64,000 nt of DNA. It comes from Nitrosopumilus sp. GTDB lineage: Archaea; Thermoproteota; Nitrososphaeria; Nitrososphaerales; Nitrosopumilaceae. The notes under the pieces are model-generated. The model saw only the letters and a list, made by a program, of their open reading frames with translations. It was not told where the DNA came from and searched no databases. Shown here piece by piece: positions 1 through 12,186 of the stretch. Position 1 is the stretch's first letter. Each line of letters begins with the position of its first letter. Location of the stretch: assembly GCF_025698945.1 (NCBI RefSeq), contig NZ_JAILWM010000005.1, positions 1 through 64,000 of the forward strand. Direction: 5' to 3'. The position numbers and the translations under genes were made by a program.

Positions 1-168
1 TCTTTGAGATCAGCTTGTAATTGTTCTAATAATGTATCTTTTTCTTTGAGATCAGCTTGTAATTGTTCTAATAATGTATCTTTTTCTTTGAGATCAGCTT
101 GTAATTGTTCTAATAATGTATCTTTTTCTTTGAGATCAGCTTGTAATTGTTCTAATAATGTATCTTTT
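1..168. repeat. 42-bp perfect tandem repeat, at least four copies
   Basis: Units begin at 1, 43, 85 and 127 and are identical at nucleotide level; the array is cut by the window edge. The period is a multiple of three and lies in frame inside the minus-strand methyltransferase gene, where each unit encodes 14 residues (two heptads). Perfect nucleotide identity, including third codon positions, points to recent expansion by slippage or recombination. The plus-strand reading of the array is an antisense artefact. Confidence 0.97.
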
Positions 169-1121
169 TGTTGTGATTCATTTTGATAATGTATAATTTG
201 TTTTTTTCTTTCTTCGATTTCATTGTTTAGATCTAAAGCCCATTTAGAACGTTCTTCAAATTCTTTTTTTAATTGAGAATAAGTTGCATCTCTTTCAGTT
301 AATTCATTATCAAGTAAACGTACTTGTTTTTGTAGAATAGGAAAATTTTTTAAGAGAATTGTATCTTCATCAAATAAAAATAATTTACTAGAGTAATGAG
401 GTAATTTAGAATCAGAACAAATTGCCAAAAAATATAATGCAGAATCATTTTGATCAGATTTTGTTCCTTCAACATCTAATTCTTGAATAGTGGAATTACT
501 TTTTGAATCAAAAATTGCAAGTGTTGAGGGATAAGATTGATGAAAAATTGAAACGTATTCGAATTTAGTTTTTAGAAATTCTTCTAGTTCTTCTCTAGAA
601 TATTCTTTTTCATGGAAGGGGTTTACAGAATTGTAAGTTTTTTTGTTAGGAGTTGATAAAATAAGTAAACCATTATTTTTTAAAATTCTTTTAGCATGTG
701 ACAAAAATTGTTCTGGATTTTTTAAATGTTCTAAAATTTCAAATGCTATTACAACATCAATGCTAGAATCAGATACTTTTGGGTTAGTACAGTCATCTTC
801 TTTAAATTGGACATTGTTTATTTTGAAATTATTTTTACAGAAAGTAATTGCTTCTTTAGATGTATCTATACCCAGTACAGATTTTGCTCCTTTTTGTGCA
901 AGTAAATAAGATCCATATCCAGTCCCACATCCTGCATCTAAAACAATTTTATTTTTAATAAATTGGCATGAGAACATATAACGAATAATATGTTCTTGAA
1001 ATAAATTTGCCAGTTCAGGACAAAAGGGTACAAATCGTTCACCGGTAAATTTTAGACTTAAATTCTGGTGTTCAGTCTTTTTGGTTAAATTTTCAAGGAA
1101 TTTTTTGTATTTTTCTTCCAT
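1..1121 (-). CDS. SAM-dependent methyltransferase with C-terminal coiled-coil repeats (partial, runs off left edge)
   Basis: The reading frame starts at an ATG at 1121 on the minus strand and is still open at position 1, so the C-terminus is missing. Residues 60-70 hold a class I methyltransferase SAM motif (VLDAGCGTGYG), followed by an acidic strand end (GID) and the IAFEILEHL region, as in UbiE/Methyltransf_11 enzymes. After about residue 200 the protein becomes charged and helical. It ends in the window in four perfect copies of a 14-residue unit (KDTLLEQLQADLKE, two heptads), which predicts a long coiled coil. It is the last visible gene of a minus-strand operon with an ABC glycan exporter and two sulfotransferases, so a glycan substrate is likely. 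The methyltransferase fold is clear; the substrate is inferred. Confidence 0.85.
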   Translation of the reverse strand, partial: MEEKYKKFLENLTKKTEHQNLSLKFTGERFVPFCPELANLFQEHIIRYMFSCQFIKNKIVLDAGCGTGYGSYLLAQKGAKSVLGIDTSKEAITFCKNNFKINNVQFKEDDCTNPKVSDSSIDVVIAFEILEHLKNPEQFLSHAKRILKNNGLLILSTPNKKTYNSVNPFHEKEYSREELEEFLKTKFEYVSIFHQSYPSTLAIFDSKSNSTIQELDVEGTKSDQNDSALYFLAICSDSKLPHYSSKLFLFDEDTILLKNFPILQKQVRLLDNELTERDATYSQLKKEFEERSKWALDLNNEIEERKKQIIHYQNESQQKDTLLEQLQADLKEKDTLLEQLQADLKEKDTLLEQLQADLKEKDTLLEQLQADLK

Positions 1122-1206: not shown

Positions 1207-1911
1207 TCATTTTTTGATTAAGCCTAATAAAGAAAAATCTGAATTTGGATAATATTCTGAAAATTCATAAATTCTTTTTTTAAGGTGTTCTGGTAAATTA
1301 GTACCTCTTCCAGAGATACATACATTTCTTCTTGTAGGTTGTTGAGATGTTTTCTCAACAGACAATTCGATGTCATTAATAGTACATGGAATTTTTGCAA
1401 ATTCTGTTATTGCAGATAAAACGTGTTTAGGATTATTTTTGAGTTCTTCATATGTGATGAGAAATTTTTGATCGTAAATTTCCCAAGAACAATAAAAATT
1501 GAAATACCATGGTATGATCATATCTACAATAAATTCAAATGCCTTAATCTTATCCCATTTCAAAATATCTTCAGGAACAAATGCCATAGGAATTGGGGTT
1601 CCAAATAGTTTAAAATGATCATAAAAGCTTTCTACTACATCAAAAATATTTCTTACAATTATTACAGGTTTTATTGAAAATTTTTCCAAATATGTTTTTG
1701 TTGCTTTTGAAAATCTGGTATGTTGATGAGAGACATAATTAATATCATTAAAACGTTCAAGAAAATCAATAGAGAGTTCTTGTTCACGTCTGTCATGAGA
1801 AGGAACCAACTGTACCAGATTCATTGTAGGTAAATTTTCAATGAGTTTTGTTAACCAAGTAGATCCACTTTTTGGCATAGCTGATACCAAGACATGGATT
1901 CTAGAGGACAT
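1207..1911 (-). CDS. Sulfotransferase family protein
   Basis: This 234-residue protein opens with the 5'-phosphosulfate-binding loop of PAPS-dependent sulfotransferases: MSSRIHVLVSAMPKSGSTWL, with PKSGSTWL as the PSB loop. A central IIVRNIFDVVESFYDHF segment matches the R-x-P-x-D-x-x-x-S 3'-phosphate-binding region, with Asn-Ile in place of the usual residues. Transfer of sulfate from PAPS to a hydroxyl group, probably on a glycan or lipid, is the family role. It lies between the coiled-coil methyltransferase and a second sulfotransferase, downstream of an ABC glycan exporter. ATG start. The acceptor cannot be told from sequence. Confidence 0.85.
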   Translation of the reverse strand: MSSRIHVLVSAMPKSGSTWLTKLIENLPTMNLVQLVPSHDRREQELSIDFLERFNDINYVSHQHTRFSKATKTYLEKFSIKPVIIVRNIFDVVESFYDHFKLFGTPIPMAFVPEDILKWDKIKAFEFIVDMIIPWYFNFYCSWEIYDQKFLITYEELKNNPKHVLSAITEFAKIPCTINDIELSVEKTSQQPTRRNVCISGRGTNLPEHLKKRIYEFSEYYPNSDFSLLGLIKK

Positions 1912-1940
1912 GATTTTATAAGAAAATACATATTAAAAAA

Positions 1941-2768
1941 CTAATTTAATTTTTGACATCTATTTCTAAAATCAATTAATTTATTATTAAAATCATGTAT
2001 TTTTTGAATTTTTTGATTAAGTTCATCATTTCCAAAATTATATAATTCTAAATCATATTTATTAAAAGATAATAATTTATCGAAAAGATTTTCACCAATT
2101 TTTTTTCGTCCGTCATTTATTCTTTCTTCTAAAGTATTCTTTCGATCATGACTAACATTTTGGCTTTTATAAGAAAGGTCAATTTTTGGGAAGAATTTTT
2201 TTAATTCTTCTTCTGCAACAACTAAACTTTCATCTAATCTATCAACAATACCCAAAACAGTACAATTTTGGAGTCTTTTAAGTGCTAAATGATAATCCTC
2301 TAATGTGATAGGATTATTATCATATGATGATTTGGAAAGATACAATACCTGAAAGTTTTTCATTACAGCGTATTTTTTTAGACTTAAACTCCAATTAACA
2401 AATTCTTTTAAAGTACCAGTTTTCGCAATAATAGTTGCAATAGAATTATCTGAATCTCTTTTTTTAAAGCTGTACACAGAAAATGCTCTATCTATAGGAT
2501 GTCTGATGAAAACCATTGGCAAAAAATGAAAAGATGATTTTTCAGGTATTGGAAATCTAATAATATGACTAGAAAACGCTTGTACATCAGAATGTTTTTG
2601 TAAAAAATTTAAAATATTTTCCCAATTAAAAATTTCAGCAGGGTTTGTTGCTTGATCATCCATAGTCAAATGATTTTTTGAAAAATTCTTTTTTAATATC
2701 CAATCTATAGTAGTTCCAGCATTCTTAAAGATGTGAAAATGCAAACATACAGGTTGTTTAGAAAGCAT
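1941..2768 (-). CDS. Sulfotransferase family 2-like protein
   Basis: The motif VCLHFHIFKNAGTT near the N-terminus is the variant P-loop (HIPKTAGTT-like) of the heparan-sulfate 2-O/chondroitin type sulfotransferase family. VFIRHPIDRAFSVYSF further on is its R-x-P-x-x-R-x-x-S PAPS-binding segment. This suggests sulfation of a polysaccharide. I chose the ATG at 2768 because the P-loop normally starts within about ten residues of the N-terminus; a TTG at 2822 would add 18 residues. It is not closely similar to the neighbouring sulfotransferase, so the two probably modify different positions. The operon also holds a polysaccharide ABC exporter upstream. Confidence 0.82.
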   Translation of the reverse strand: MLSKQPVCLHFHIFKNAGTTIDWILKKNFSKNHLTMDDQATNPAEIFNWENILNFLQKHSDVQAFSSHIIRFPIPEKSSFHFLPMVFIRHPIDRAFSVYSFKKRDSDNSIATIIAKTGTLKEFVNWSLSLKKYAVMKNFQVLYLSKSSYDNNPITLEDYHLALKRLQNCTVLGIVDRLDESLVVAEEELKKFFPKIDLSYKSQNVSHDRKNTLEERINDGRKKIGENLFDKLLSFNKYDLELYNFGNDELNQKIQKIHDFNNKLIDFRNRCQKLN

Positions 2769-2822
2769 CAAACAAAATTGAAAATTAGTATTATTAATTC
2801 TTTTAAAAAATATAATTCTCAA

Positions 2823-3509
2823 TCAAAAATAATCTTCATATTTTTTAATAATTTCCTTAGGTTTACCATCATGAATGAGTCTCCCTTTATCAAGAAAAAT
2901 TACTCTATCACATAATTTTGAAACCATATCTAAATTATGGGAAGAAAACAAGATAGTTTTACCACGTTTTTTAAATGAAATAAATGCATCAAAACTTTTT
3001 TTTCTAAACGAGATATCTCCAACGGATAAAACTTCATCCACAACTAAAATATCAGGATCTATATGCATTGCAGTAGAAAAAGCAAGTCTAGAGCGCATTC
3101 CTAATGAATAATTTTTCAATTTCATGTTAGTGAATTTGTCTAGCTCAGCAAAGTGAATAATTTCATTAATTTTTAATTTAATTTCAGATTTTCTTAATCC
3201 TAACAATAGACCATATATCATAATATTTTCACTAGCAATTAAATCTCCATGAAACCCTGTACCTATTTGTAATAACGGTGATAGTTTTCCCCTAACAGAA
3301 ATTGAGCCTGAATCAGAAGGATAAATTCCAGAGATTGTACGAAGCAGGGTAGTTTTACCACTTCCATTTTTTCCAATTATTCCTACCATTTGTCCTTTAG
3401 GAACATTAAAAGAAATATTTTCAAGTGCGGTTAATTTTTTGTTTCCTGTGTTTTCACTATTTCTTACAGAAAATGTTTTTGTAACATTTTTTAAAATTAT
3501 AGAATCCAT
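2823..3509 (-). CDS. ABC transporter ATP-binding protein, polysaccharide export type (Wzt/TagH-like)
   Basis: All ABC ATPase motifs are visible: Walker A (GIIGKNGSGKTTLL), a degenerate signature NYSLGMRSRLAFS typical of glycan exporters, Walker B with catalytic Glu (ILVVDEVLSVGD) and the H-loop (LFSSHN). The spacing and the YSLGM-type signature match the Wzt/RfbB/TagH group, which energises export of finished polysaccharide. The C-terminal carbohydrate-binding domain of some Wzt proteins is absent, since the protein ends after the nucleotide-binding domain. I prefer the ATG at 3509, 7 nt after the permease stop; an ATG at 3545 would overlap the permease. Partner: the permease immediately upstream. 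Confidence 0.93.
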   Translation of the reverse strand: MDSIILKNVTKTFSVRNSENTGNKKLTALENISFNVPKGQMVGIIGKNGSGKTTLLRTISGIYPSDSGSISVRGKLSPLLQIGTGFHGDLIASENIMIYGLLLGLRKSEIKLKINEIIHFAELDKFTNMKLKNYSLGMRSRLAFSTAMHIDPDILVVDEVLSVGDISFRKKSFDAFISFKKRGKTILFSSHNLDMVSKLCDRVIFLDKGRLIHDGKPKEIIKKYEDYF

Positions 3510-3516
3510 AATGTCA

Positions 3517-4335
3517 CTATAGTTTTTCAGATACCTTATTTTCATACTTTTGGAAAATTGTATAGCCTAAGAATAAAATACCAAATACTATTGAAGTAGT
3601 GTAAATCCATTCTTCAAAGGTAGGAACAATTCCAAAGATAATTTTGTGACCTAATTCAATTAATTGCCCAAGAGGATTTATTTTATGAATTTCAAGTAAT
3701 ATTCCATTTGCATCTTGAATATACCAAAATACAGGTGATATAAAGATCAACGAATAAGTAAGAACCCCCCAAATAGGGTGAATATCTTTGAAAAACACAT
3801 ATGTGATTGAAAGGATATATGATATTCCCAAGACTAGTGTAAGAAATAGCGCCATAAGAAATGGCAAGAAAACAATTGTCCAGCTTAGTGAAAAATTAAA
3901 AATTGGCACTAAGATAAAGAATACAGTTAGTTGTACAAACATTAATAGTAATACAGAACCCGTGTTGACTACAGGAAAAAATTCTTTTTGTATATTCATA
4001 AAAGTCAAAATATTACTATTAACTTTCAGACTTACTAATCCATTCATACTTCCTCGTATGAATAAATGGTAGAGGAAAACTCCAAATATAAGATATATTG
4101 CAAAATCATCTTGTTTACTGACATCTTTAATGCTAGTAAATACAACATATAGAATCAAGAAAATAAAAAGAGGTTCTAATACAGACCAAAGTAAACCCAA
4201 ATAGGTTCCTTTGTATCTCATTTTAATATTCAATACTGAGAAATAGAAAATAAGAGATCTTTTTTCCCACAAATTTACCAATGGAACGAAAATCAATTTA
4301 GTCAATTGAGATGTTTTTTTATTACATTTTAGCAT
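3517..4335 (-). CDS. ABC-2 type polysaccharide export permease (Wzm-like)
   Basis: A 272-residue membrane protein with about six hydrophobic helices. The segment MRYKGTYLGLLWSVLEPLF before the first helix is the typical N-terminal signature of the ABC-2 permease family (RfbA/Wzm/TagG), which moves undecaprenyl- or dolichol-linked glycans across the membrane. It is the first gene of a minus-strand operon: permease, ATPase, two sulfotransferases, methyltransferase. ATG start at 4335. In an archaeon the exported product would go to the outside of the cytoplasmic membrane, next to the S-layer. Confidence 0.92.
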   Translation of the reverse strand: MLKCNKKTSQLTKLIFVPLVNLWEKRSLIFYFSVLNIKMRYKGTYLGLLWSVLEPLFIFLILYVVFTSIKDVSKQDDFAIYLIFGVFLYHLFIRGSMNGLVSLKVNSNILTFMNIQKEFFPVVNTGSVLLLMFVQLTVFFILVPIFNFSLSWTIVFLPFLMALFLTLVLGISYILSITYVFFKDIHPIWGVLTYSLIFISPVFWYIQDANGILLEIHKINPLGQLIELGHKIIFGIVPTFEEWIYTTSIVFGILFLGYTIFQKYENKVSEKL

Positions 4336-11544: not shown

Positions 11545-12186
11545 TTGTTTTCCAATTTATTGGATTCAAAAACCTTCAAATCCATAATTAGGCATTATAC
11601 AAAGCTTCATGAGGAATATGGAACAACTCCTGCTGGAATTGGATGGATGAAAGGTAAACAAGACATTAGATTTAATGCTGTATCAAAAATTGGAGTTTTA
11701 AAAAATTCAAGTGTAATTGACATTGGATGTGGCTATGGTGATTTTCTTGCTTTCCTAAATAAAAAAAGGTTTAATGTAAAATATACTGGAATTGATATTA
11801 ATGAAAGATTTATTGATATTGCAAAAAGTAAACATCCGAATTCATATTTTGATGTAAGAGATATAGAGAAAAAGCCACTTAAAAAAAAATTTGATTGGGC
11901 ATTTGCAATAGGAACTACAAATCAAAATGGGAGTTACTCATACATAGAAAAACTAATGAAAGAAATGCTTAAAATTTCAAAAAAAGGAATAGCAATAGAC
12001 TTTCTTAGTACTTATGTTGATTTTAAAAAACCTTCAAATTTTCATGCTTCACCAGAAAAAGTTTTCAAAATTGCAAAAAAATTCTCAAAAAGGGTGGTTT
12101 TAAAACATGATTACTTACCATTTGAATTTTGTATTTTTATATATAAAAATGATAAAATTTCAAAAAACATATCATTTTTAAAATAA
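11545..12186 (+). CDS. SAM-dependent methyltransferase
   Basis: VIDIGCGYGDFLAFL is a canonical class I SAM-binding loop, followed by the acidic GIDINERF. The TTPAGIGWMKGKQDIRF segment before it is commonly seen in methyltransferases of bacterial and archaeal glycan clusters. It probably methylates a sugar in the pathway of its cassette neighbours. The start is weakly defined: the frame has a TTG at 11545 and no ATG upstream. An out-of-frame ATG at 11522 opens only a 21-codon ORF that overlaps the start. Either translation begins at the TTG or the first bases carry a frameshift. Confidence 0.8.
   Translation: MFSNLLDSKTFKSIIRHYTKLHEEYGTTPAGIGWMKGKQDIRFNAVSKIGVLKNSSVIDIGCGYGDFLAFLNKKRFNVKYTGIDINERFIDIAKSKHPNSYFDVRDIEKKPLKKKFDWAFAIGTTNQNGSYSYIEKLMKEMLKISKKGIAIDFLSTYVDFKKPSNFHASPEKVFKIAKKFSKRVVLKHDYLPFEFCIFIYKNDKISKNISFLK

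What the first reader, a model, noticed from the sequence alone, without database searches (positions are those of the whole stretch)
1..1121. Methyltransferase with an expandable two-heptad coiled coil beside a glycan ABC exporter: possible chain-length ruler
Seen: a SAM methyltransferase whose C-terminal part contains at least four perfect 42-bp repeats, each encoding 14 residues with Leu at most core positions. The same operon holds a Wzm/Wzt-like exporter. Known: in bacteria WbdD caps O-antigen by methylation, and the length of its coiled coil sets the polysaccharide length, with an ABC exporter downstream. Inference: this may be an archaeal analogue in which repeat number tunes glycan length. 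Identical third codon positions suggest recent copy-number change.
Basis: partly seen in the sequence, partly recalled or inferred. Interest (0 to 1): 0.78.

Follow-up and report, generated by a model that had tools for sequence, protein, structure and literature searches.

The report
Archaeal glycan terminator-ruler-polymerase with repeat array
In an ammonia-oxidizing archaeon, one large protein appears to join a chain-capping enzyme and the sugar-chain-building enzymes through a rod made of identical copies of a 42-base DNA repeat, so adding or losing copies could change how long the cell-surface sugar chains grow, as rods of this type do in bacteria.

Summary
Window 1-169 holds four perfect 42-bp copies encoding (KDTLLEQLQADLKE)n, inside an open frame (3-1121, minus strand) that starts with a class I methyltransferase (MT). 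The window is the left end of contig C5. The same array ends contig C7, where the frame runs on into a GT2 and a GT4 glycosyltransferase. The assembly broke inside the array, so the protein is MT-coil-GT2-GT4, not an MT with a coiled C-terminus.

The locus lies beside Wzm/Wzt, sulfotransferases, rmlBCD and an S-layer-like gene. In the family, MT homologues occur in 5 of 219 genomes, all within about 7 kb of a Wzm; only 26 of 219 genomes have one. Near such exporters I found ten genes with near-perfect arrays of coil-preserving period (42, 33 or 21 bp), each with a different unit. Random control DNA had no 42- or 33-bp arrays and one 21-bp array.

This matches the bacterial terminator-ruler-polymerase design (WbbB, Klebsiella O7 ORF6, WbdD/WbdA, WsaE). 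Two bacterial MT hits also carry coil repeats. I read it as an archaeal, repeat-expandable version of a known ruler. Capping, ruler function and copy-number variation between strains remain untested.

The parts
1..169 (-). Tandem array, 42-bp unit, 4.0 perfect copies, encodes (KDTLLEQLQADLKE)n; runs off the contig end
   Evidence: TRF; copies identical; continues at the end of contig C7
3..1121 (-). N-terminal part of the fused protein: methyltransferase plus coil (frame continues on contig C7: GT2 + GT4, L003:6144-8591 minus)
612..956 (-). Class I SAM methyltransferase domain (residues 56-170; motif I DAGCGTG), proposed chain terminator
   Evidence: Pfam Methyltransf_31/11/23/25
3..341 (-). 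Continuous helix / predicted coiled coil (residues 261-373), containing the array
   Evidence: AlphaFold2 single-sequence model: helix 261-372, block pLDDT 74-93 from residue 281; 14-residue period
1207..1911 (-). Sulfotransferase (Sulfotransfer_1)
   Evidence: Pfam E=3e-16
1941..2822 (-). Sulfotransferase (Sulfotransfer_2)
   Evidence: Pfam E=3e-7, above cutoff
2823..3545 (-). Wzt-like ABC ATPase, 240 aa, no C-terminal carbohydrate-binding domain
   Evidence: Pfam ABC_tran; NCBIfam teichoic acid / galactan exporter ATPase models are best hits but below cutoffs
3517..4335 (-). Wzm-like ABC-2 membrane subunit
   Evidence: Pfam ABC2_membrane; alignment A1

Best explanation
The gene encodes a single-chain glycan assembly enzyme: an N-terminal methyltransferase that caps the growing chain, a rigid coiled-coil spacer, and a C-terminal GT2-GT4 polymerase held near the membrane. 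The polymerase extends a lipid-linked, probably rhamnose-containing surface glycan; only when the chain is long enough to reach the methyltransferase at the far end of the rod is it methylated and stopped; the neighbouring Wzm/Wzt exports it. The rod is built from identical 42-bp (two-heptad) units, which can be gained or lost without breaking frame or heptad phase, so the ruler can change length in steps of about 2.1 nm. Shown: domains, order, in-frame array, operon context, recurrence in relatives. Inferred: capping, ruler action, glycan identity, effect of copy number.
For: Fused MT-coil-GT2-GT4 across C5/C7, joined in frame by the only two places of the array in the genome. Intact parallels: G182, one 1149-aa ORF MT-(SREIEEK)5-GT2-GT2; G036, complete genome, FkbM MT-coil (42 bp x 6.3) followed by a GT2-GT4 about 50% identical to that on C7, although in another frame. 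MT homologues: 5/219 genomes, all with Wzm within about 7 kb, when 26/219 have Wzm. Arrays near exporters: 10 genes with periods 42 x 8, 33, 21; control 5 arrays with periods 15, 21, 24, 27, 45 (Fisher p=0.004). rmlBCD above NCBIfam cutoffs, heptose-type genes below cutoffs, S-layer-like neighbour: a layout like bacterial slg clusters (PMC2943079). Coil length sets chain length in E. coli O9a (PMC5082667); [quoted passage not shown]
Against: No enzymatic or glycan data. Wzt lacks a CBM, so the export check known from O9a is not evident. MTs can decorate rather than cap. Heptad contrast of single units is not significant on shuffling (combined p=0.07, underpowered). The MT fold was not modelled. 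The C5/C7 join passes through an unassembled array. [quoted passage not shown] Only two genomes carry the full GT half.
Confidence: 0.6

Rival explanations
1. The coil is only a tether or oligomerization rod that keeps the methyltransferase and glycosyltransferases in one complex. The methyltransferase decorates internal sugars, and array length is selectively near-neutral.
For: No capping data; Wzt has no cap-recognizing domain; coil sequence and length are poorly conserved; WsaE methylation was not length dependent in vitro (PMC2943079).
Against: Same order and exporter linkage as bacterial terminators with tested rulers (PMC11231755, PMC5082667). Coils recur between unrelated MT classes (Methyltransf_11, FkbM, Methyltransf_24) and GT modules.
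Confidence: 0.28
2. The arrays are mainly a by-product of slippage in repetitive coiled-coil codons, as for any long coil, and say nothing specific about glycan length.
For: A decayed 126-bp-period coil repeat and other perfect low-complexity arrays exist elsewhere in the same genomes.
Against: Near-perfect 42- or 33-bp arrays were found only by exporters in the sample (0 in 800 kb control); coil repeats also occur in bacterial MT-coil proteins found by MT similarity alone.
Confidence: 0.25
3. Contigs C5 and C7 are not adjacent; the MT-coil and the coil-GT proteins are two genes that share a repeat.
For: The junction is not in any assembled sequence; in G036 the MT-coil and GT parts sit in different frames.
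Against: The array has exactly two places in the genome, one contig end each, same orientation and reading phase. G182 has the whole architecture in one ORF; G036 has the two halves directly adjacent.
Confidence: 0.05

Closest known systems
Klebsiella pneumoniae O7 ORF6 (MT-kinase-coil-GT2-GT2 terminator/polymerase; PMC11231755)
   Same: N-terminal methyltransferase, central coil, two C-terminal GT modules in one chain, beside wzm/wzt and rml genes
   Different: Here no kinase domain found; second GT is GT4-like; archaeal; coil built of perfect 42-bp repeats
WbbB of Klebsiella O12 / Raoultella terrigena (fused terminator-coil-polymerase; PMC11231755)
   Same: Terminator and polymerase on one polypeptide, separated by a coil that acts as a ruler
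   Different: WbbB caps with beta-Kdo by a glycosyltransferase; here the N-terminal domain is a methyltransferase
WbdD/WbdA of E. coli O8/O9a (PMC3482155, PMC5082667)
   Same: Methyl cap, coil between capping site and polymerase, ABC exporter
   Different: Two proteins; O9a WbdD has a kinase; Wzt carries a CBM; no tandem DNA array described in the papers read
WsaE of the Geobacillus stearothermophilus S-layer glycan cluster (PMC2943079)
   Same: N-terminal methyltransferase plus two GT domains; wzm-wzt upstream, rmlABCD downstream, S-layer context
   Different: I had no WsaE sequence: coil and homology not tested; its methylation was not length dependent in vitro

Membership tests
Coil-type terminators of ABC-exported glycans (WbdD/WbbB/O7 ORF6 group) | Terminating catalytic domain at one end of the chain | tested here: inconclusive
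   Class I SAM MT domain with motif I is present; that it terminates chains cannot be tested here
Coil-type terminators of ABC-exported glycans (WbdD/WbbB/O7 ORF6 group) | Extended coiled coil between terminator and polymerase | tested here: met
   Continuous helix 261-372 in the model, 14-residue period; heptad shuffle test of single units not significant
Coil-type terminators of ABC-exported glycans (WbdD/WbbB/O7 ORF6 group) | Polymerase GT modules at, or recruited to, the other end of the coil | tested here: met
   GT2 + GT4 on contig C7 in the same frame; intact one-ORF parallel in G182
Coil-type terminators of ABC-exported glycans (WbdD/WbbB/O7 ORF6 group) | Gene linked to a Wzm/Wzt exporter | tested here: met
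   Window 2823-4335; 5 of 5 MT homologues linked
Coil-type terminators of ABC-exported glycans (WbdD/WbbB/O7 ORF6 group) | Wzt with C-terminal carbohydrate-binding module recognizing the cap (O9a type) | tested here: not met
   Wzt is 240 aa; only ABC_tran and AAA_21 matched. So it is described as working like the group, not filed as an O9a-type member
Coil-type terminators of ABC-exported glycans (WbdD/WbbB/O7 ORF6 group) | Coil length determines glycan chain length | not testable with these tools
   Needs glycan analysis of length variants
WbdD (O9a) / O7 ORF6 methyltransferase-kinase | Kinase domain next to the methyltransferase | tested here: not met
   No kinase family in the Pfam scan or the listed NCBIfam hits; O8 WbdD also lacks one (PMC3482155)
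WsaE-type multifunctional methyl-rhamnosyl enzyme | N-terminal MT plus two GT domains, cluster with wzm-wzt and rml genes | tested here: met
   rmlB, rmlC, rmlD above NCBIfam cutoffs
WsaE-type multifunctional methyl-rhamnosyl enzyme | Sequence homology to WsaE and rhamnosyl specificity | not tested
   WsaE sequence not at hand; donor specificity needs biochemistry

The most novel reading that the evidence does not exclude
Array copy number changes rapidly within populations and acts as a heritable stepwise rheostat for surface-glycan length: a tandem-repeat contingency locus that changes a ruler by quanta of two heptads without switching the gene off, shared by ammonia-oxidizing archaea and some bacteria.
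Probability: 0.3. Interest if true: 0.8.

Novelty: new variant of a known kind. Interest (0 to 1): 0.62.

Why it matters
It would extend the terminator-ruler-polymerase logic of bacterial surface polysaccharides to archaea, next to a gene resembling the S-layer protein that coats marine ammonia oxidizers and is implicated in ammonium binding (PMC11153153). The near-perfect arrays suggest how ruler lengths evolve: by whole-repeat steps that preserve frame and heptad phase. They give a natural length series (units of about 2.1 nm) with which to test ruler theory. They also warn that short-read assemblies break exactly in these genes, so the fused proteins and their lengths are missed.

Tried and rejected
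The one genome-contig scan with the MT gave only four distant bacterial loci, two of them useful. The genus search with the MT found only G072; family-wide searches were needed. My simple heptad caller marked 176 of 693 control ORFs and was discarded as non-specific. Shuffling single 14-mers gave no significance, so the coil claim rests on period, helix model and context. Assembly artefact rejected: intact arrays occur inside contigs in G036, G070, G103, G139 and G182. On/off phase variation rejected: units are multiples of three. The continuation of the G072 array was not found in its other contigs. The paper on the ruler experiment itself (PMC4650267) was not held; no paper in the library combined variable tandem repeats with such coils under the terms tried.

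Full report
Observation. The window starts inside a perfect 42-bp tandem array (1-169, 4.0 copies, 100%) that encodes KDTLLEQLQADLKE on the minus strand. The four copies are identical at every position. The reading frame 3-1121 begins with a class I methyltransferase and goes, after a linker, into a helix of at least 112 residues (AlphaFold2 single-sequence model: helix 261-372, block pLDDT 74-93 from residue 281; the MT itself was not modelled).

The missing half. The window is the left end of contig G000:C5. The array has one other place in the genome, the right end of contig C7 (135 bp, 100%). There it is in the same orientation and phase and continues as KDKPINNLQSEIVNLNFELYVIKNSLIFK..., then a GT2 and a GT4 domain. 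The simplest reading is one protein, MT-coil-GT2-GT4, split by the assembler inside the array. The 169 bp at the C5 end equals 127 + 42, which is what a k=127 assembler would leave; this is inference, since the assembler is unknown. The true copy number is therefore unknown, and at least about four.

Context. On C5, same strand: two sulfotransferases, Wzt (240 aa, no CBM) and Wzm. On C7, same strand apart from one methyltransferase: GmhB-, HddA- and GmhA-like genes (hits below curated equivalog cutoffs), rmlC, rmlB and rmlD (above cutoffs), a sugar nucleotidyltransferase, and a giant protein whose N-terminus matches the N. maritimus S-layer protein (8c8k, E=5e-243). This resembles the bacterial S-layer glycan clusters with wzm-wzt, a central MT-GT enzyme and rmlABCD (PMC2943079). 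The archaeal origin is supported by that S-layer match and by a Cdc6/Orc1 gene in the window.

Relatives. The MT alone, searched in 219 genomes of the family, hits five (G000, G072, G105, G149, G168), each with a Wzm on the same contig within about 7 kb, although only 26 of 219 genomes have a Wzm at the threshold used. All five MTs are followed by coil-like sequence: perfect 42-bp arrays at contig ends in G000, G072 and G168, degenerate 14-residue repeats in G105 and G149. The GT half has one full-length relative, G036 (about 50% identity), a complete genome in which an FkbM-type MT and a 42-bp x 6.3 array of unrelated sequence precede it. Thus MT type and array unit differ while the polymerase and the place of the array are kept.

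Survey. Around the 26 exporters I found ten genes with near-perfect arrays (at least 100 bp, at least 95%): periods 42 bp (G000, G072, G036, G070, G139, G168, G181, G187), 33 bp (G103) and 21 bp (G182). All units differ in sequence. 800 kb of random stretches from family members gave five arrays by the same rule, with periods 21, 24, 15, 45 and 27. Coil-preserving periods: 10/10 against 1/5 (Fisher p=0.004); period 42: 8/10 against 0/5 (p=0.007). The sample is modest, the control was not matched for gene type, and period classes were chosen after seeing the first arrays. The array genes carry an MT (G000, G072, G036, G139, G168, G182; in G187 the MT follows the coil and part of the repeat region reads N), or lie between an MT-like and a GT gene (G070), or follow a GT domain (G103); G181 is cut by the contig end and was not assigned a domain. 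In the five cases with sequence beyond the coil (G000/C7, G036, G070, G139, G182) a shared segment follows (around NSxIFKxxKxIxxxID...R...), a candidate docking or membrane segment; its function is untested.

Bacteria. Two of the four bacterial MT hits, found by MT similarity alone, are MT-coil proteins with repeats: a Lachnospiraceae MAG (MT - 42 bp x 4.6, 95% - NSTHWRLTYPLR - GT4 - GT2, domain names of the last two by my reading of the sequence) and Legionella parisiensis (84 bp x 4.1). So repeat-built coils in this enzyme class are not restricted to archaea.

Mechanism. In E. coli O9a, insertions or truncations in the WbdD coil lengthen or shorten the O-antigen (PMC5082667), and in Klebsiella O4, O7 and O12 the terminator sits at the distal end of a coil from the polymerase (PMC11231755). 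By analogy, the MT here caps chains that have grown past the rod, and each 14-residue unit (about 2.1 nm, roughly four sugars at 0.5 nm each) adds a step. Shown: sequence, architecture, linkage, recurrence. Inferred: capping, ruler function, glycan type. Not shown: copy-number differences between strains of one species, because only one genome per species is held.

Verdict. The protein is the fused type, and the repeat-built ruler is a recurring variant. It is a new variant of a known kind, with the variable-ruler hypothesis open and directly testable.

Noticed in passing
L004:1-8277 minus (G000:C7): Giant S-layer-like protein (over 2759 aa, cut by the contig end in a 138-bp repeat) with N. 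maritimus SLP-like N-terminus followed by FN3-, NHL- and TolB-propeller-like parts.
   Followed up: partly
L016 about 11811-11883 (G036): MT-coil and GT2-GT4 halves sit in two frames that overlap at a run of nine A; sequencing error, separate proteins or frameshifting.
   Followed up: no
L021:12484-13848 (G008): Wzt of 455 aa with an N-terminal extension before the ATPase, possibly a carbohydrate-binding domain at the unusual end.
   Followed up: no
L020:4624-6003 (G070): 460-aa protein without Pfam hits next to an array-bearing coil protein; has a SAM-methyltransferase-like stretch and looks, from memory, like bacterial kinase-methyltransferase terminators.
   Followed up: no
L052:10292-11251 (G061): MT-like protein ending in degenerate 11-residue (hendecad) coil repeats, a counterpart of the 33-bp array in G103.
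   Followed up: no
window 1207-2822: Two different sulfotransferases between the fused gene and Wzt; sulfotransferase-like proteins also sit beside the exporter in G072: the exported glycan may be sulfated.
   Followed up: no
L011:1-469 (G072): Surface-type protein with long Asp/Asn/His-rich short tandem repeats at the contig start.
   Followed up: no
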